Below, in pieces: positions 795 to 39,605 of a stretch of 46,674 bases of DNA (position 1 is the stretch's first letter; each line of letters starts with the position of its first letter). The stretch is from a virus. Under the pieces are notes generated by a model, which made no database searches, was not told where the DNA came from, and saw nothing but the letters and a program-made list of their open reading frames with translations. Position numbers and translations under genes: made by a program. The stretch covers positions 1-46,674 of IMG/VR virus record IMGVR_UViG_3300046506_000224. The stretch is one strand, 5' to 3'.

Positions 795-1016
795 GTGGAG
801 CGGGCTGGGGCTCGCCGAAAAACGGCAGAAGTCCAGGGTTTCTGCGGGTTTCAGGACTGATGGCAACGCGCGAAACGCGCTGCGGGCATCGGTTCATGTC
901 GGCACAGAAGGTGGCACATTCTGTTCACGGCGCGTTCGCGTCGCCCTCGCGGTGAACACCGATCAGACAGCGTTCGGGTGGGATGCGTTGTGACATGGCC
1001 CTTCGGCGACCTCCGC
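795..1016. other. Phage-side attachment region without genes
   Basis: This spacer joins the tRNA-derived core to the first phage gene. It contains short inverted repeats (GCAGAA/TTCTGC around 830-850 and GCGCG-AAA-CGCGC around 867-880) and a repeated GGCACA about 900-917. Such features could be arm-type integrase or excisionase sites, but that is inference from position only. No integrase gene is present here, so it should be near the other end of the prophage. Confidence 0.4.
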
Positions 1017-1610
1017 ATGTTCGGCTACAACGTGATCTACGCCGACCCGGCATGGACCTTCGAAACATATTCCGAAGCCGGGGCCGGCCGCAGTCCGCAG
1101 GCGCACTACGACACGATGACGGTGGACGAGATCGCCGCGCTCCCGGTCGGCCAACTCGCGCAGGGTAACGCCGCATGCGCGCTATGGGTGGTCGACCCGC
1201 TTCTCCCCGAGGGCCTGTACGTGCTCAAGCGTTGGGGCTTCCGATTCGCGACGGTGCTGTTCACCTGGACCAAGGAAAAGCCCAGCGGCGCCGAGCATAT
1301 CGGCACGGGATACTACACCCGCGCGAACCCCGAAATGTGCCTACTCGGTATCTCGGGATCGATGCCGGCGCGTGATCGCGGCGTGCGGCAATGGCGACAC
1401 GGCCCGGTCGGCGAGCATAGCCGCAAGCCGGACGAGTTCGCGACCGATCTGGAGCGGCTGTTCGGCGACGTGCCGCGGTGCGAGCTATTCGCGCGGTCGC
1501 GTCGGGCCGGATGGGATGGCTGGGGGTTTGAGATCGATGGCCGGCGGGAGCGGAGGGTGGTGGCTCCGGTGATCGCGCCAGCTCCGCTGTTCGATGAGCG
1601 CGCGGCATGA
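1017..1610 (+). CDS. MT-A70 family DNA adenine-N6 methyltransferase
   Basis: This predicted SAM-dependent adenine methyltransferase has the motif IV variant DPAW at residues 10-13, immediately after a hydrophobic strand (NVIYA), as in short phage MT-A70 enzymes (canonical DPPW). The core includes CALWVVDPLLPEGLYVLKRW and a C-terminal SRRAGWDGWG segment typical of the family. Length is about 197 residues. I prefer ATG 1017 because the catalytic domain begins directly there; an in-frame GTG at 978 would add 13 residues with no visible domain. The gene is the first of the rightward cassette at the prophage end and overlaps the next gene by ATGA. In phages such enzymes usually modify viral DNA against host restriction; its recognition site cannot be read from sequence. 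Confidence 0.85.
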   Translation: MFGYNVIYADPAWTFETYSEAGAGRSPQAHYDTMTVDEIAALPVGQLAQGNAACALWVVDPLLPEGLYVLKRWGFRFATVLFTWTKEKPSGAEHIGTGYYTRANPEMCLLGISGSMPARDRGVRQWRHGPVGEHSRKPDEFATDLERLFGDVPRCELFARSRRAGWDGWGFEIDGRRERRVVAPVIAPAPLFDERAA

Positions 1611-2893: not shown

Positions 2894-3209
2894 CGTGGAT
2901 CTCCGTTATCTTGGATCGGACGAGGGTGGTGGTCTTGTCGTCGGCGATGGCGACCCGCTTGCCGATCGCGTCGACCGTGGCCTGGGCTTCACGTTCGTCC
3001 GAGCGGGCTTCGGCGACGGTTTTGGCGTGGGCCTTTTCCTGTCGTGCCTCGACCTTGGCAGCGCCTGCCGTGGAACCGCGGTGATAGATGATGGCGTAGA
3101 TGCTGCCGAGTAGCGCTGCGACGGCGATGAACGGAACAGCCCAGCCGAACAGGGTGGCGGCCCAACGCGGCCATGCCCAGCCGCTTGCGAGGGAGATCAG
3201 GAAGAGCAT
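2751..3209 (-). CDS. Inner-membrane spanin (i-spanin, Rz-like)
   Basis: One strong N-terminal membrane segment (about residues 20-45, LFGWAVPFIAVAALLGSIYAI) is followed by a long Ala/Glu/Lys/Arg-rich helix (AAKVEARQEKAHAKTVAEA) predicted to form a periplasmic coiled coil. This is the architecture of Rz-type i-spanins. The gene lies in the lysis cassette after the endolysin and DUF6527 genes, and the o-spanin gene starts inside its 3' end. The Pro-rich C-terminus (PGGPVGATVPPPVF) may contact the o-spanin. The assignment rests on topology and gene overlap, because spanins diverge strongly in sequence. Confidence 0.75.
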   Translation of the reverse strand: MLFLISLASGWAWPRWAATLFGWAVPFIAVAALLGSIYAIIYHRGSTAGAAKVEARQEKAHAKTVAEARSDEREAQATVDAIGKRVAIADDKTTTLVRSKITEIHDALDATPGGPVGATVPPPVFDGSGVRASLNAVVDSANRAADAADAER

Positions 3210-34349: not shown

Positions 34350-34633
34350 GACGAAGCGCCTTTCATGGCAGCGGCATAAATCGAGGATTGCATGTCTTTC
34401 CGGCCGAACGCATGATCCAGCCAGACTTGCTCCACGTAGAACATGCCCTTGTGCTGTTGCTCGGCGTAGGGCTTGTAGCGCTCGGCGATCTCTGCCGATG
34501 AGCAGATGGCGACGATCTGTGGTCGACCTGGCTTGAGCGACCACACGACGTGCAGCACAATGTCGCCGCGATCATCGTAGGTCAGGCGCGGGTCGCGTGG
34601 TTCGATCATCTCGCTTCCTTCCGTCTGTGTCAT
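34346..34633 (-). CDS. Hypothetical accessory protein (95 aa)
   Basis: ATG 34633 overlaps the previous stop (ATGA). The protein (MTQTEGSEMIEPRDPRLTYD) has strands DIVLHVVWSLKPGRPQIVAI followed by SSAEIAERYKPYAEQQHKGM and FYVEQVWLDHAFG. This alpha-beta pattern resembles small phage proteins of unknown function. ATG at residue 9 is an alternative start. Confidence 0.55.
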   Translation of the reverse strand: MTQTEGSEMIEPRDPRLTYDDRGDIVLHVVWSLKPGRPQIVAICSSAEIAERYKPYAEQQHKGMFYVEQVWLDHAFGRKDMQSSIYAAAMKGASS

Positions 34634-35064
34634 TGCGATGCGGCCTGGGAGCGGGCATGGAGGGCGGCTGCGGTAAGGGCGAGTGCTGGGCTAGCCCCAT
34701 ATCGTGAGACGATACGCGCCCCATGCCACACACAGGCTCGGCTCGTGTTTCCGGTGCGCTCAAACTGGACGTTGAACCCTTCCGGCACCAACGTCATCGC
34801 AGCATCGATGCTGCCGAGCCAGTCGGGCGGATCAATGCGCTGCCGGGGAACGCGCTGATCCTCGCCGGTCTGGCACCACCAGCCGCTATCGTCCTCACGC
34901 CAGCCATAGCCATGCTCGACGGGCGACAGTTCAGGCACTTCGAACAGCGCGCGGTAAATGTCCTTGGACAGAGCGGGGTCACGCCCGCCCAACCGCCCAG
35001 CCCGATCAGCCAGTTCGTTCAGGTCCATGTTCTTCTCCGCCATCTCGTTTAGCTCCGCGCTCAT
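34630..35064 (-). CDS. Phage ABA-sandwich domain protein (144 aa)
   Basis: N-terminal LNELADRAGRLGGRDPALSKDI, a central DPPDWLGSIDAAMTLVPEGF and C-terminal YGASPALALTAAALHARSQA match the widespread phage ABA-sandwich domain (alpha-beta-alpha) whose role is unknown. The WWCQTGEDQRVPRQRIDPPD linker is less conserved. Coupled to both neighbours by overlap. Such genes are common in accessory regions of proteobacterial phages. Confidence 0.65.
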   Translation of the reverse strand: MSAELNEMAEKNMDLNELADRAGRLGGRDPALSKDIYRALFEVPELSPVEHGYGWREDDSGWWCQTGEDQRVPRQRIDPPDWLGSIDAAMTLVPEGFNVQFERTGNTSRACVWHGARIVSRYGASPALALTAAALHARSQAASQ

Positions 35065-35288
35065 TGGGAGGCGCTCCGGGCGCGCTCTGGATCATAGACC
35101 CAGCCCAAGGCATTCAGACGCGTGTCAACGTCGGACTCGCCCTCTTTCCAAGTGCCCAGCCACAACGCCAAATGGTATCGCCCCTTCTCCTTGGGCGCGC
35201 CGTACGACAGCTTGACCGTGTCCGCGGGGTGATCCTGAAACGCCCGCAGTAGCAGGCCGTCTCCGGGCTTAAGTTCGCCGTCGCTCAT
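35061..35288 (-). CDS. Hypothetical accessory protein (75 aa)
   Basis: ATG 35288 (MSDGELKPGDGLLLRAFQDH) is preferred; the frame continues upstream without sense as protein. Short beta-like core (DTVKLSYGAPKEKGRYHLAL, WLGTWKEGESDVDT) and C-terminal ARSASQ. The YHLALWLGTW segment occurs in small phage proteins of unknown role. Overlaps the next gene by 4 bp. Confidence 0.5.
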   Translation of the reverse strand: MSDGELKPGDGLLLRAFQDHPADTVKLSYGAPKEKGRYHLALWLGTWKEGESDVDTRLNALGWVYDPERARSASQ

Positions 35289-35304
35289 GTTCTTCTCCGT
35301 GGGG

Positions 35305-35583
35305 TTAGAGGGCATCGGAAGGGGGTTGGGCGGGTGCGTTCTCTTCGTGCCAAGTGTCGATCTCGGCGCAGACTGCCTCCCATGTCTTGCCGTCTGCCTT
35401 CTCGCCATTGTCGGTCCACCCGATCTCTTCGCCCTCGTATGAGGCGTCGTAGTTCGGGCCGAGCGCCATGAAGGCGGGCTCTGGCCAGCGACCGCGATAG
35501 ACCGACCATCCGCGATAGGTGTCTGGCTGCTGCGGCACTTCGCCGAGCGCGTGAATATGGGCCTTTAACGCTGCGTCGGACAT
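35305..35583 (-). CDS. Hypothetical accessory protein (92 aa)
   Basis: I choose ATG 35583 (MSDAALKAHIHALGEVPQQP) because AGGAGG lies eight bases upstream. ATG 35619 overlaps the preceding stop and would add 12 residues. The product has YRGWSVYRGRWPEPAFMALG and YEGEEIGWTDNGEKADGKTW, aromatic-rich and acidic. Proteins with this YxGWxVY pattern are frequent in phage accessory clusters, without a known function. Confidence 0.55.
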   Translation of the reverse strand: MSDAALKAHIHALGEVPQQPDTYRGWSVYRGRWPEPAFMALGPNYDASYEGEEIGWTDNGEKADGKTWEAVCAEIDTWHEENAPAQPPSDAL

Positions 35584-35615
35584 TGTCTGCGCCTCCTTCG
35601 GGGGTGGGGTGGATG

Positions 35616-35822
35616 TCATGGGTAGGGCTCGTTTGCGTTGCGCTCGCGATACCGATCGCGGCATCCGACCGAGCAGAACACTTCGTCCTTTTCGACAATC
35701 CAGCCAGCCGCGCGCACGTATTCGAGCAGGCGGCCTTTGGGCAGGTAGTCGTCGGAGAACACGCCCTCGGATGGGATACTGCAATCCCCGCAAACGATCT
35801 CGCACCAAACCGAAACGCTCAT
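35616..35822 (-). CDS. Small Cys-rich zinc-ribbon-like protein (68 aa)
   Basis: First gene after the divergent promoter. CEIVCGDC (residues 7-14) and VFCSVGCRDRYRER form two Cys pairs with spacing like small treble-clef or zinc-ribbon domains (FCSVGCRDRY resembles FCS-type fingers). It probably binds zinc; partners are unknown. RBS-like AGAGG precedes ATG 35822. Confidence 0.65.
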   Translation of the reverse strand: MSVSVWCEIVCGDCSIPSEGVFSDDYLPKGRLLEYVRAAGWIVEKDEVFCSVGCRDRYRERNANEPYP

Positions 35823-35841
35823 TTCACTTGCCTCTAAAAAC

Positions 35842-35899
35842 AGTATCGATTAGCTAAACGACATCGTTTTGCTCGTCAACTACAAAAGAGTATCGTTTT
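35842..35899 (-). promoter_or_regulatory. Leftward promoter with operator in the spacer
   Basis: On the minus strand a good -35 (TTGACG, 35874-35879) is followed after 17 bases by a -10-like TAGCTA (35851-35856). The spacer contains the inverted repeat AAACGA-TG-TCGTTT (35856-35869, minus-strand reading). Related half-sites GTATCG occur at 35843-35848 and 35890-35895. The RHH gene reads away to the right. The arrangement fits repression of the leftward accessory operon by the neighbouring RHH protein. Confidence 0.5.
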
Positions 35900-35936
35900 C
35901 TTGAAACAGCCAGCCAAGCCAGCTACGGAGCGCCAG

Positions 35937-36110
35937 ATGGGTCGCCCTCCGCTTTTCATGAAACCAGTGCCCGTGCGGCTGTCGCAAGACGCGCTCGACC
36001 GCATCGAGAAGATCGCCGGGAAATACGGGCGCCCGAAGTTCATCCGAGAAGCCGTCGCCGAGAAGCTCGCCCGCGAAGAACTCTCCGAACTCCACCGCGA
36101 AGGCAAGTAG
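35937..36110 (+). CDS. Ribbon-helix-helix (CopG/Arc-like) regulator
   Basis: 57 residues from ATG 35937, with GGAG eight bases upstream; TTG 35901 in frame would add 12 residues without a ribosome binding site. The first segment KPVPVRLSQDALDRIEKIAG gives a DNA-binding strand (VPVRL) and first helix; GRPKFIREAVAEKLAREELS forms the second. This is the RHH fold of small repressors. It is the only rightward gene of the accessory region and lies just right of the operator-bearing promoter. Its stop codon directly abuts the stop of the TnpB gene, with no spacer. It likely controls the leftward operon and possibly itself. Confidence 0.75.
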   Translation: MGRPPLFMKPVPVRLSQDALDRIEKIAGKYGRPKFIREAVAEKLAREELSELHREGK

Positions 36111-37199
36111 TTAACATGCGCGCTGCCCAGCAAAGGCGGTGCTTCCCCCAACGGGAGGCTGATGTTCCAGCCCGACGCGAAGAATGTTGAGCGCTGCGTT
36201 GACGTCCCGATCGTGGGACGCTCCGCAGTCGCTACATTGCCAGCGCCTTATTCCAAGCGCGCCCATACCTTTCGGACTGCTGTCGGGAATGGTCCCGCAG
36301 CACGAGCACGTTTGGGAACTGTATCGTTCGTCCGCTTCGATAAACACGGCTCCGTGCCTTCTGGCCTTGTAGCGGAGCATGTGTCGGAAATCCGACCAGC
36401 CGGCGTCGAGCACGGACTTAGCCATCCGTGTCTTAGCCAGGCCGGCGGCGTTCACATTGCCGACGACGATCAGACTATTCTCCCGAACGATCCTGGTGGA
36501 CTGTTCGTGAAGGTGGTGACGGCGAGCGTTCGCTATCTTGGCATGGATAGCTCGAACTCGCTGCTTGTTTCGCGCCCGCTGGGCAACAGCCAGACGAGCT
36601 TCATATTGCCGGTAGTGCTGGAGCGCAGGCACCTTGCGACCGTCGCTCAACGTTGCGAGATCCTTCAGGCCAAGGTCGATGCCAATTCTGCCATCGCCAG
36701 TGGGGAGATCATCGGCCACCTTGCATTGAAAGACGACATACCAGCGCCCGCGCGCGTCTTGGGCGAAACTTCCGCAACGATACTCGCCCTCGACGTCGCG
36801 GCTTTTCCAAAATTGGTATCGACGCTTGAGGTAAATAACAGCGCCACCGTCTAGCCTAGCATTGCGCGATCTGAACGGCACCCATCCGAGAGAGCGCTTC
36901 GGCCCAAAGCTCACGCGGAACCGAGGGCAGCGCCGGCGCTGGTCGCGGCTCTTTGCGAACTGCAAACAGATTGCCGTTATGGTGTCCGAATGTAGCCCAA
37001 GGCCAACCGACGAACCTGCCGTCAAGCGGTCGAGTTCGTAGCCTGACGGCCAGAAAACGCGCTTGTCTCCATACCGCCGGCGCTCTGCATCCCTCTGCGT
37101 CGCGACGCAGAAGTTCCACACCTGATTGCAGGCAATCGCATGACGACGGAGATGCCGATCGCCGCTCTTAACGCGATATTTGAAGCTAATTATTGACAT
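36111..37199 (-). CDS. Lone TnpB-family (IS605 OrfB-like) RNA-guided nuclease homologue
   Basis: 362 residues from ATG 37199, 5 bases after the previous stop. Domains: an N-terminal wedge-like region (1-160), RuvC-I with Asp175 in RIGIDLGLKDLA, the helical insert (HYRQYEARLAVAQRARNKQR), RuvC-II region, zinc ribbon (CSCC 298-301, CSDC 322-325) and RuvC-III with HDRDVNAALNIL (Asp332). At the usual RuvC-II Glu (V-I-E-D-L-N in canonical TnpB) this protein has Gly247-Asn248 (LIVVGNVNAAGL). A Glu in ADERYSSQTC (291) is the best candidate for a relocated catalytic residue; otherwise the protein is nuclease-dead. No TnpA gene or clear insertion-sequence ends are visible; the gene sits in a phage operon. 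Confidence 0.8.
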   Translation of the reverse strand: MSIISFKYRVKSGDRHLRRHAIACNQVWNFCVATQRDAERRRYGDKRVFWPSGYELDRLTAGSSVGLGLHSDTITAICLQFAKSRDQRRRCPRFRVSFGPKRSLGWVPFRSRNARLDGGAVIYLKRRYQFWKSRDVEGEYRCGSFAQDARGRWYVVFQCKVADDLPTGDGRIGIDLGLKDLATLSDGRKVPALQHYRQYEARLAVAQRARNKQRVRAIHAKIANARRHHLHEQSTRIVRENSLIVVGNVNAAGLAKTRMAKSVLDAGWSDFRHMLRYKARRHGAVFIEADERYSSQTCSCCGTIPDSSPKGMGALGIRRWQCSDCGASHDRDVNAALNILRVGLEHQPPVGGSTAFAGQRAC

Positions 37200-37204
37200 G
37201 CCGC

Positions 37205-37579
37205 TCAACCATGATCGGGGGCCTTGGTGAGGGTGCGGAGAGAGGCGGAGACGGCGTTGCGATCGTCGGTGTGCTTCCGGTACAAAGCCCACAGCCGCTT
37301 GCTCTCTGCCCGCATCCCATCCCATACGGTCATGCCGTTGTCGGCGATCGGCTCCATCGGATCGTTCTTGTCGACCGTTCCGAGCGCGTTCATCGCTTGG
37401 CGTAGAAGCTCGTTGGAATCCGCGAACGTCTCTCGGAACCGCTCAATCGCCGCAGCTTCGGCAGCGAGCATGGCGCGGTAAGCCGACCGCCGCGCGAAGC
37501 CCGGTGCCCGATGCCCGCGCTCCTTCGCTTCCATAAGCAGCGCCGCGTCGTACAGCTCCTTCATTTCAGCATCACTCAT
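37205..37579 (-). CDS. Hypothetical early protein (124 aa)
   Basis: Starts at ATG 37579 (MSDAEMKELYDAALLMEAKE), overlapping the previous stop. It is helical and Arg/Glu-rich (FARRSAYRAMLAAEAAAIER; NELLRQAMNALGTVDKNDPM) and ends ASLRTLTKAPDHG just before the TnpB start, so TnpB is probably translated from the same transcript. No known domain. Confidence 0.55.
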   Translation of the reverse strand: MSDAEMKELYDAALLMEAKERGHRAPGFARRSAYRAMLAAEAAAIERFRETFADSNELLRQAMNALGTVDKNDPMEPIADNGMTVWDGMRAESKRLWALYRKHTDDRNAVSASLRTLTKAPDHG

Positions 37580-37778
37580 GACCATCATCCGCATAGGGAA
37601 CGAGCGCCGAGAACCGCTCCAAGGCCGCGTCTAGGGCGCCTTGCTCCCCGGCCGACAGGAACCCGGTATCGAATGCTTCACGGGCAGCGATAACGAGATC
37701 GATGACATCTTGTGGCAAGTTCGCTTCCAGGTCTGGACGCGACGGGCTGTCTGGACGTGCGGGGGAGTTAGTCGGCAT
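37572..37778 (-). CDS. Small acidic early protein (68 aa)
   Basis: MPTNSPARPDSPSRPDLEAN at the start, then a helix DVIDLVIAAREAFDTGFLSA and EQGALDAALERFSAL. The pattern (DVIxLVIAAREAFD, ALDxALERFS) is frequent in small phage proteins of unknown function in alpha- and betaproteobacterial phages. Overlaps neighbours by 8-11 bp. Confidence 0.55.
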   Translation of the reverse strand: MPTNSPARPDSPSRPDLEANLPQDVIDLVIAAREAFDTGFLSAGEQGALDAALERFSALVPYADDGHE

Positions 37779-38118
37779 TGGGGGTCTCCGGGGTGGGGTT
37801 GTGCGATGCCTGACGGCCCGCGCTGTCGCCTACGGCCGAGCCGCTGTGCGTCTCGTCGGCTTCGCCGCTTCCATCGCTATCGCTGGCGGGCGCGCCATCG
37901 TGCCAGACAAAATAGGTTCCGTATTCGGGATGGCCGTGGATTTTCGCCATGTCCTCAAAGCTGGACCAGACCGACGTTGACGGCGTGGTGCACCAGCGAA
38001 GCACGCAGGTTCCGTCGCTGAAAATGATGCCTTCAAGCTGGGGCTGATCGGCCGGAGCCTTTTGGTCCGCAGTATGCGTCTCGGGTACGAACGGGCGATA
38101 GAGCGTGAAGCGCTTCAT
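37768..38118 (-). CDS. Hypothetical early protein (116 aa)
   Basis: The first ~75 residues (MKRFTLYRPFVPETHTADQK; LEGIIFSDGTCVLRWCTTPS; YGTYFVWHDG) look like a small beta domain seen in other phage accessory proteins (FSDGTCVLRW). The C-terminal ~40 residues are Ser/Gly/Asp-rich and disordered. ATG 38118 overlaps the previous stop (ATGA). Confidence 0.55.
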   Translation of the reverse strand: MKRFTLYRPFVPETHTADQKAPADQPQLEGIIFSDGTCVLRWCTTPSTSVWSSFEDMAKIHGHPEYGTYFVWHDGAPASDSDGSGEADETHSGSAVGDSAGRQASHNPTPETPNAD

Positions 38119-38558
38119 GCCTTACCTCCAGAGAGATACGGCCCGCTCTCGTATGCCTCAGGTCCGCCCCATTTCCCGTTGTCGGGCATGGCGAACATTG
38201 AGCCGAGCCAGATGTGATTGATCGCGCCGCATGTGCACTGATAGTGCCAATGCCAAGCCGTTTCCGCGATTACCTGTGCGCACTGCTCAGCATGGACCCA
38301 ACGACGACAATCGCAGCAGATGAAGTCCCAGCCGTAGCGCTTTATCGCACGCTGCCTACGCCGCCGCTCAGCCCATTTGGGGAATAGACGCTCAATCAGT
38401 GTGTCGTGGTCGCGGACAAACCGCGCGCCAACTTGCTGTCGCTCGTCGCCGTGGGTTTGACGGCTGCGCGAGGGATCGAAGCCGCTTGCGGCCGAGACCG
38501 AAGGGCTCGGTTCACGAGAGCCCGGTGCCAACGGCACGCGCCCTAAATCGTTATCCAT
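38115..38558 (-). CDS. Cys/His-rich early protein (147 aa)
   Basis: Starts at ATG 38558 (MDNDLGRVPLAPGSREPSPS), overlapping the preceding stop region by 8 bp. After a flexible N-terminus and basic stretch (FPKWAERRRRQRAIKRYGWD), a zinc-binding centre appears: FICCDCRRWVHAEQC, then WHWHYQCTCGAINHIW. The two Cys pairs with His resemble a zinc ribbon. May bind nucleic acid. No family recognised. Confidence 0.6.
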   Translation of the reverse strand: MDNDLGRVPLAPGSREPSPSVSAASGFDPSRSRQTHGDERQQVGARFVRDHDTLIERLFPKWAERRRRQRAIKRYGWDFICCDCRRWVHAEQCAQVIAETAWHWHYQCTCGAINHIWLGSMFAMPDNGKWGGPEAYESGPYLSGGKA

Positions 38559-38937
38559 TCTTGCTCTCCGGGGTGATGGAGGGGATGGGGTCGGCAGCGG
38601 CAACGAGCGAGCGAAGACTGTCGATCGCGACATCGTGCATCGCCAGCGCTCGGCTGATCTCGGCCATCTTCTCGCTGACGTGGAACGCTTCATCCCGATC
38701 GCCGTCGTGATACGCGGACGCCATTGAGCGCGGGAAAAGGCCTGCTCTGGCGATATCGTCGGTGTAGCCGTTAGCGCCGCCAGAAGACGACTTGCGGTGC
38801 CACGCTCGCCAATACCGGGACCATATCAGCCATTCGCATGATCCCTCGGGCGTCTCTCGAAGGCGGCGCAGGAAGCGACCGTTCGGACCACGCTTTTGCC
38901 CACTCGTCTTGCCGACGCGCTCTGGGGAGGGAGTCAT
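38551..38937 (-). CDS. Hypothetical early protein (128 aa)
   Basis: MTPSPERVGKTSGQKRGPNG at the start, basic N-terminus, Trp-rich centre (CEWLIWSRYWRAWHRKSSSG), then an acidic helical part (EKMAEISRALAMHDVAIDSL). The ATG overlaps the stop of the methyltransferase gene. Not recognised. Confidence 0.55.
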   Translation of the reverse strand: MTPSPERVGKTSGQKRGPNGRFLRRLRETPEGSCEWLIWSRYWRAWHRKSSSGGANGYTDDIARAGLFPRSMASAYHDGDRDEAFHVSEKMAEISRALAMHDVAIDSLRSLVAAADPIPSITPESKNG

Positions 38938-39605
38938 GCTGCGAGGGCCTGTTGGTTGAGGTGCGCGATAAGCTGCCGGCCAATGAACTCGGTGTATGCG
39001 GGCGGGATAGCTTGGGCGATTTCCTCGCGCCGGGCCCGCCAGTTTATGCCCATCGCGGCGGCGCCATCTTCACGCTTGAAGTTGTGGCCTGCGACGCAGA
39101 TCATGTCGGCGCCCGTCTCAAATGTGCTATAGGTCCGCGAGGAATTGGTGGTGCCGCGATGCTGCCGATGGGGCGGCGTCATCATGAAGAAGCTGCATTC
39201 GAACAAACGATGGCGAAACACGCGCAACCCGAACATCGTGCCGCACAACATGATCGGATCAATGAGCGGCGCGCCGGGGACGTTCTCGATTACGTATGGC
39301 TTCCCGCTGGTGATGCAAATGTCTCGGGCCCGGCTTATGAAATCGCCGTGACGCGCGACCGTCGCCAGATGCAGCTTGGCAGTGATGCTGTGGATTTGGC
39401 ACGGAGGGCTGGCATGGATAGCGTCGAAGCCCGAAACGAAAGCCGGGCCCAGGTCGCAAACGTCAGCCTGGATGAACTCGAAAGGGTAGTTCGGCTGTGG
39501 CGCGATATCGACGCCGACGACATCGAAGCCAGCTTGGTGATAGCCCATACCAGCCCCGCCCGCACAGCAGAACAGGTCCAGCAACCTAGGACGCCGCCCG
39601 CTCAC
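38934..39605 (-). CDS. C5-cytosine DNA methyltransferase (short phage type)
   Basis: 223 residues. Motif I LLDLFCCAGGAGMGYHQAGF (8-27) binds SAM, motif IV SPPCQ (66-70, catalytic Cys69), motif VI ENVPGAP (107-113), motif VIII RVFRHRLFE (128-136) and motif X near AIPPAYTEFIG (199-209) are all present. The target-recognition region is very short, as in compact phage enzymes. It converts cytosine to 5-methylcytosine in an unknown site. Start GTG 39605 overlaps the previous stop (GTGA). Likely protects phage DNA from restriction, complementing the MT-A70 enzyme at the left end. Confidence 0.88.
   Translation of the reverse strand: MSGRRPRLLDLFCCAGGAGMGYHQAGFDVVGVDIAPQPNYPFEFIQADVCDLGPAFVSGFDAIHASPPCQIHSITAKLHLATVARHGDFISRARDICITSGKPYVIENVPGAPLIDPIMLCGTMFGLRVFRHRLFECSFFMMTPPHRQHRGTTNSSRTYSTFETGADMICVAGHNFKREDGAAAMGINWRARREEIAQAIPPAYTEFIGRQLIAHLNQQALAA

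What the first reader, a model, noticed from the sequence alone, without database searches (positions are those of the whole stretch)
36111..37199. Lone TnpB in a phage early operon, with a displaced or missing RuvC-II glutamate
Seen: RuvC-I Asp (GIDLGL), a full zinc ribbon and RuvC-III HDRDVNAA are intact, but the position of the canonical Glu (V-I-E-D-L-N) reads V-V-G-N-V-N. A Glu in DERYSSQTC next to the zinc ribbon is the best alternative. There is no TnpA and no clear insertion-sequence ends, and the start lies 5 bases after another phage gene. Known: TnpB proteins are RNA-guided nucleases; some clades have a relocated catalytic Glu and others have become nuclease-dead repressors (TldR). 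Inference: this protein is either a TnpB with rearranged catalysis or a domesticated guide-directed regulator kept by the phage.
Basis: partly seen in the sequence, partly recalled or inferred. Interest (0 to 1): 0.65.

Follow-up and report, generated by a model that had tools for sequence, protein, structure and literature searches.

The report
Relocated-glutamate TnpB in a phage operon
This phage carries an ordinary type of RNA-guided DNA cutter (TnpB) whose catalytic glutamate sits in a known alternative position; it looks intact, has its guide-RNA end, and has lost the jumping parts of the insertion sequence it came from.

Summary
The sequence observation is right; the "dead regulator" reading is not supported. 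Window 36111-37199 (minus) encodes a 362-aa TnpB. Gly247 replaces the canonical RuvC-II Glu, but Glu291 lies exactly six residues before the first zinc-ribbon Cys, the published "Ealt" position of a TnpB clade and of Fanzors. In 16 aligned relatives Gly247 and Glu291 are both invariant. Four relatives are IS605 elements with a divergent Y1 TnpA, so the rearrangement is a clade trait, not a lesion. This predicts an omegaRNA whose guide reads the neighbouring phage gene. Left end and TnpA are absent. A related phage (L002) has a 91% identical TnpB, also without a left end, on the other side of the same gene and with a different guide; dN/dS is about 0.11. Best reading: a nuclease-competent, IS605-derived Ealt TnpB trapped in a phage operon, possibly cutting TnpB-free rival DNA. 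No TAM or target was shown. It is a new member of a known kind.

The parts
36111..37199 (-). tnpB, 362 aa (P0001), RNA-guided endonuclease TnpB family
   Evidence: Pfam OrfB_IS605, Cas12f1-like_TNB; NCBIfam guided_TnpB, 221 bits against a cut-off of 100
36675..36677 (-). codon of RuvC-I Asp175
   Evidence: invariant in A1
36459..36461 (-). codon of Gly247, at the canonical RuvC-II Glu position
   Evidence: invariant Gly in A1; aligned with the Glu of ISDra2 TnpB
36327..36329 (-). codon of Glu291, alternative catalytic Glu (ExxxxxxCxxC)
   Evidence: the only invariant Glu in 16 relatives; matches the published Ealt pattern
36225..36308 (-). zinc ribbon, C298-x2-C301 ... C322-x2-C325
   Evidence: invariant cysteines
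36204..36206 (-). codon of RuvC-III Asp332
   Evidence: invariant; aligned with the second Asp of HDRD in ISDra2 TnpB
36111..36172 (-). insertion-sequence right end / predicted omegaRNA 3' scaffold: three hairpins and terminal GTTAA, overlapping the 3' end of tnpB and its stop codon
36162..36166 (-). pseudoknot strand 1 (AACAU, loop of hairpin A)
   Evidence: pairs in all sequences, two-sided changes at all five pairs
36113..36117 (-). pseudoknot strand 2 (AUGUU, right-end tail)
36091..36110 (-). predicted guide (CTACTTGCCTTCGCGGTGGA), antisense to the 3' end of the ribbon-helix-helix-like gene
   Evidence: follows the conserved right end; the first 16 nt match the TnpB-free RHH 3' end of relative L002 exactly; function inferred
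35901..36110 (+). small ribbon-helix-helix-like gene, convergent with tnpB (alternative ATG 35938); supplies the guide sequence
   Evidence: present without TnpB in L017; the name is from the sequence pattern only, no Pfam or PHROG match
37205..37594 (-). phage gene directly upstream in the operon, unknown function
   Evidence: its 3' end is shared with L002

Best explanation
It is a catalytically competent, RNA-guided TnpB nuclease of the Ealt / D-hydrophobic-G clade, derived from an IS605-type element that has lost its TnpA gene and left end and now sits as a passenger gene in a phage operon. Shown by sequence: the D175-E291-D332 set with the Glu in the alternative position, and a right end with an intact covarying pseudoknot at the 3' end of the gene. 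Inferred: the operon transcript is processed into an omegaRNA whose guide begins at 36110 and reads the end of the adjacent RHH-like gene; the complex cuts DNA carrying that sequence beside a suitable TAM, that is, TnpB-free versions of the locus in co-infecting related phages. That would favour the TnpB-bearing allele, as homing endonucleases do and as TnpB does for IS-bearing plasmids. The 0.75 is for identity as an Ealt, nuclease-competent, IS605-derived TnpB; the rival-cutting step alone I put at about 0.35.
For: E291 is 16/16 and G247 16/16 in relatives. ExxxxxxCxxC is the published Ealt definition (PMC10711439). In the Fanzor SpuFz1 structure the two Mg ions are held by E541, D383, N385 and D606 (PMC10432273), and Fanzors carry the Glu in the Ealt position. 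Relatives L005, L008, L021 and L025 have a divergent Y1 TnpA (Pfam Y1_Tnp 1.5e-33 for L005), and L005, L021 and L025 a left-end hairpin. Right-end structure: 95% of cells paired against 75.6% shuffled, 17 of 23 pairs with two-sided changes, pseudoknot 100% paired; slid versions pair 40-51%. dN/dS is 0.048/0.421 against the L002 copy. GC3 is 0.66 against 0.82-0.86 in phage core genes, so the gene is foreign. Guides differ between the two phages, and the W guide matches the L002 RHH 3' end at 16/16. The AF2 model places E291 directly after strand 285-290, and Foldseek finds TnpB structures 8h1j and 8iaz first. Precedent for TnpB gene drive in plasmids: PMC11870625.
Against: No direct evidence of cleavage, transcription or a guide RNA. 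Hairpin C is imperfect in this copy (7 of 9 pairs). The TAM of this subclade is unknown. The L002 match is preceded by TAACCC, unlike the TTNC-like left flank suggested by complete elements, so the rival-cutting step may fail. TnpB is about twice as diverged (dS 0.42) as the portal segment and the RHH gene (0.22 each), so the selection signal may partly pre-date life in the phage.
Confidence: 0.75

Rival explanations
1. A nuclease-dead, domesticated RNA-guided repressor (TldR-like) used by the phage to silence a gene.
For: Phage-borne, no TnpA, no left end, retained under purifying selection; canonical Glu absent. TldRs occur in prophages (PMC13418256).
Against: TldRs are defined by RuvC inactivation, whereas here D175, E291 and D332 are all present and invariant in a clade that includes IS605 elements with TnpA. 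The guide is not conserved between the two phages and points to the adjacent sequence, not to a fixed promoter.
Confidence: 0.06
2. An inert IS remnant: a trapped tnpB with no present function, carried by recent horizontal transfer and shuffled by phage mosaicism.
For: Foreign composition (GC3 0.66 against 0.82-0.86), no left end, no TnpA, weakened hairpin C, different positions in two phages. Relatives L004 and L007/L010 are broken by stops or frameshifts.
Against: Intact ORF, intact pseudoknot, and dN/dS about 0.11 between two copies that both lack the left end.
Confidence: 0.14
3. A fully mobile IS605-family element that TnpA supplied in trans still moves, with a left end too short to recognise.
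For: A clear right end, and two copies at different positions whose shared part starts within 1 nt of the start codon.
Against: Complete relatives have a left-end hairpin that has no match near this gene; the upstream 20 nt are phage sequence shared with L002, where TnpB is absent from that site.
Confidence: 0.05

Closest known systems
Ealt / D-hydrophobic-G TnpB clade (PMC10711439)
   Same: Glu six residues before the first zinc-ribbon Cys, DLG in RuvC-I, zinc ribbon, RuvC-III Asp, reRNA pseudoknot
   Different: This copy has no left end and no TnpA; activity not tested
IS200/IS605 elements (IS605 layout) encoding close relatives: L005, L008, L021, L025
   Same: 48-68% identical TnpB; right end with hairpin C and terminal (G)TTAA/(G)TCAA
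   Different: They carry divergent Y1 TnpA, and three of them a recognisable left-end hairpin; the window copy has neither
ISDra2 TnpB (PDB 8h1j, 8exa)
   Same: Overall domain order and RuvC/zinc-ribbon core
   Different: Canonical RuvC-II Glu; the window protein has Gly there and the Glu after the next strand
TnpB of Acinetobacter phage HFM1 and Salmonella phage LPSTLL
   Same: 46% and 42% identical, lone tnpB among phage genes, Ealt motif (ESYTTRTC, EAYTTQTC), right end ending GTCAA
   Different: Other phages and other positions; tens of bases or more separate tnpB from its neighbour genes
TldR (TnpB-like nuclease-dead repressors, PMC13418256)
   Same: Phage-borne, retained without TnpA
   Different: TldR lacks catalytic residues and uses a guide against a regulated gene; not so here

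Membership tests
Ealt / D-hydrophobic-G TnpB clade | Glu six residues before the first zinc-ribbon Cys (ExxxxxxCxxC), canonical Glu absent | tested here: met
   E291-RYSSQT-C298; G247 at the canonical site; both 16/16
Ealt / D-hydrophobic-G TnpB clade | RuvC-I D-hydrophobic-G (not DPG) | tested here: met
   GIDLGL, D175-L-G, invariant
Ealt / D-hydrophobic-G TnpB clade | omegaRNA/reRNA with pseudoknot at the element's right end | tested here: met
   five pseudoknot pairs, 100% paired, all with two-sided changes; RNA itself not observed
Ealt / D-hydrophobic-G TnpB clade | RNA-guided dsDNA cleavage | not testable with these tools
   needs biochemistry
IS200/IS605 insertion sequence (complete element) | Y1 transposase TnpA | tested here: not met
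   motif search of window six-frame ORFs found none; relatives have it
IS200/IS605 insertion sequence (complete element) | structured right end | tested here: met
IS200/IS605 insertion sequence (complete element) | left-end hairpin | tested here: not met
   phage sequence runs to 1 nt before the ATG; no left-end-like hairpin near the gene
TldR | inactivated RuvC active site | tested here: not met
   D175, E291, D332 present and invariant
TldR | conserved guide matching a regulated promoter | tested here: inconclusive
   guide differs between this phage and L002 and follows the position, which speaks against it; only two copies, and host genomes were not searched for the guide
Fanzor / pro-Fanzor | DPG in RuvC-I together with Ealt | tested here: not met
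   DLG
Cas12f (CRISPR type V-F) | CRISPR array nearby | tested here: not met
   no array-like direct repeats in 34500-38500

The most novel reading that the evidence does not exclude
The phage lineage has domesticated an end-less, TnpA-less Ealt TnpB as a free-standing RNA-guided homing or exclusion nuclease: wherever recombination drops the gene in the operon, the next ~20 nt become its guide, so it is re-aimed at the matching TnpB-free locus of rival phages. The two known phage copies (this window and L002) have different guides, and the guide of this one matches the other phage at 16/16.
Probability: 0.15. Interest if true: 0.55.

Novelty: new member of a known kind. Interest (0 to 1): 0.27.

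Why it matters
It removes a possible mis-annotation ('catalytically broken TnpB'). It shows that the alternative-Glu clade includes IS605-type elements with TnpA and phage-borne copies, and gives a covariation-supported omegaRNA end for this subclade. If the phage keeps the gene for its nuclease activity, it would be a simple natural case in which an RNA-guided nuclease is re-aimed merely by changing its position in a genome.

Tried and rejected
DNA-level search of phage records with the locus and with 21 kb of structural genes found nothing. Rfam found no family at the locus. Searches for empty sites through the upstream gene, the RHH-like gene and two junction patterns found only L002 from this phage group and RHH-only relatives, so no exact empty site could be shown. 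A survey of 297 genomes of the order of Shinella found no further close copy. The TAM was sought from multi-copy Pseudoduganella elements and complete IS605 relatives; a TTNC-like left flank is suggested but not established for this subclade. A TnpB-RHH functional pair was rejected: RHH relatives occur without TnpB, and its position relative to TnpB is not fixed. A CRISPR array was rejected. Distances between E291 and the two Asp residues could not be measured because model coordinates are not exposed.

Full report
What is there. The window is a 46,674-base IMG/VR virus record with portal, terminase, tail and DnaB-like helicase genes. The reported gene is real: minus strand, ATG at 37199, stop at 36111, 362 residues. 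It matches Pfam OrfB_IS605 and Cas12f1-like TNB and NCBIfam 'RNA-guided endonuclease TnpB family protein' (221 bits, cut-off 100). It starts 5 bases after gene 37205-37594 and ends tail-to-tail with a small ribbon-helix-helix-like gene (35901-36110, plus strand) with no base between the two stop codons.

The 'missing' glutamate. In alignment with solved ISDra2 TnpB, the canonical RuvC-II Glu falls on Gly247. Glu291 is followed by six residues and then the first zinc-ribbon Cys (ERYSSQTC). This is the pattern ExxxxxxCxxC by which a published survey defines the alternative Glu ('Ealt'), found in a branch of TnpBs with D-hydrophobic-G in RuvC-I and in Fanzors with DPG (PMC10711439). In the 16 aligned sequences (the window's and 15 relatives from viral contigs and bacterial genomes, 48-91% identical), Gly247 and Glu291 are both invariant, as are D175, D332 and the four zinc-ribbon cysteines; Glu291 is the only invariant Glu. 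Two named phages carry the same motif. In the solved Fanzor SpuFz1 the active site uses D383, E541 and D606 with two Mg ions (PMC10432273). The AF2 model here (pLDDT 79.8, pTM 0.55) puts E291 directly after strand 285-290, one strand on from the strand holding G247 (243-248), in keeping with the topologically distinct location the survey describes for Ealt proteins. I could not measure distances. The protein is therefore most likely an active nuclease of a known arrangement, not a damaged one.

The insertion-sequence family. Relatives L005, L008, L021 and L025 have a divergent gene upstream with the Y1 TnpA motifs (the L005 one is Pfam Y1_Tnp, E 1.5e-33), and L005, L021 and L025 a left-end hairpin. 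A right end is shared across the group: hairpin A, hairpin B, hairpin C and a tail ending in (G)TTAA or (G)TCAA. On the 14-sequence alignment the named structure, with a pseudoknot between the loop of hairpin A and the tail, pairs in 95% of cells against 75.6% in shuffles. 17 of 23 pairs have changes on both sides; the pseudoknot pairs in every sequence, with two-sided changes at all five pairs; slid controls drop to 40-51%. I wrote this structure after looking at these sequences, so the percentage paired is favoured; the two-sided changes are the stronger evidence. L022 and L025, which are less regular there, were left out of that count. In the window the pseudoknot is AACAU with AUGUU, intact, while hairpin C keeps 7 of 9 pairs. 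A pseudoknot of this kind was shown by mutation and rescue to matter for activity in ISXfa1 TnpB (PMC10711439). The stop codon, which falls inside hairpin C in many relatives, is moved in this copy and in L002 to the terminal TAA of the right end.

The left end is gone. The 20 nt before the ATG (CCCCGATCATGGTTGAGCGG, then one C) are phage sequence, shared with L002 at a place where L002 has no TnpB. No left-end-like hairpin lies near the gene, and the TnpA motif search found none in the window.

The informative relative. L002 (7.6 kb, fully read as L046) is a related phage: portal segment 97% identical, similar gene order. Its TnpB is 91% identical and also begins within 5 nt of the last shared phage sequence, but it lies on the other side of the RHH-like gene. 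The guide therefore differs: CTACTTGCCTTCGCGG here, GAAGGAGGCGCAGATG in L002. The guide of the window copy matches the TnpB-free RHH 3' end in L002 at 16/16. dN/dS between the two is 0.048/0.421, but dS of the portal segment and of RHH is only 0.22, and GC3 of tnpB is 0.66 against 0.82-0.86 for phage genes. The gene is foreign, and it is open whether the two phages share one capture. How an element without a left end came to two places is not explained; phage mosaicism is the simplest guess.

How it most likely works. Shown: intact catalytic residues in the Ealt layout; intact right-end structure; no left end and no TnpA; constraint on the protein. Inferred from TnpB biology: operon mRNA is trimmed to an omegaRNA (TnpB can process its own mRNA, PMC10278001, title and abstract); the first bases after the right end are the guide; the complex cuts TnpB-free copies of that locus beside a TAM, giving the TnpB allele an advantage, as shown for IS-bearing plasmids (PMC11870625). 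Not shown: TAM, expression, cleavage, and any effect on rivals.

Against the regulator reading. TldRs are defined by RuvC inactivation (PMC13418256), which is not met. The guide follows position instead of being kept. The neighbouring RHH-like gene also occurs without TnpB (L017), so there is no fixed partner.

Verdict. The protein is a new member of a known kind. The modest remaining interest is that two related phages keep a left-end-less Ealt TnpB, with little protein change, at different positions and with different guides.

Noticed in passing
window 35840-35900; L017 2486-2565; L018 5895-5945: Upstream of the RHH-like gene lies a cluster of repeated short palindrome-like sites (TATCGTTT / AAACGATA in the window and L017, GATATCGCTT in L018), looking like an operator array that changes together with the regulator.
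   Followed up: no
window 34630-37242 against L046 496-2326: Between the two phages, short unrelated genes are swapped at fixed places in the operon: L046 540-737 has a small gene absent here, and the window's 35065-35822 genes are absent there; in both phages TnpB sits where a gene of the other is missing.
   Followed up: partly
L007 5001-6067 and L010 5001-6067; L004 5001-6074: Relatives of this TnpB in other viral contigs are broken by a frameshift or a stop, so phage-borne copies do decay.
   Followed up: partly
window 38934-39605 (-) and 978-1610 (+): Two DNA methyltransferase-like genes: a short C5-type (Pfam DNA_methylase, phrog_363) and one matching phrog_359.
   Followed up: no
L024, L026, L028, L039 (TnpB near position 3001 in the first three): Pseudoduganella ginsengisoli carries several copies of a related Ealt element with both ends (left end TTRCTCC then GAAAC, right end ACGTCAA), suitable for inferring the TAM of this group.
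   Followed up: partly
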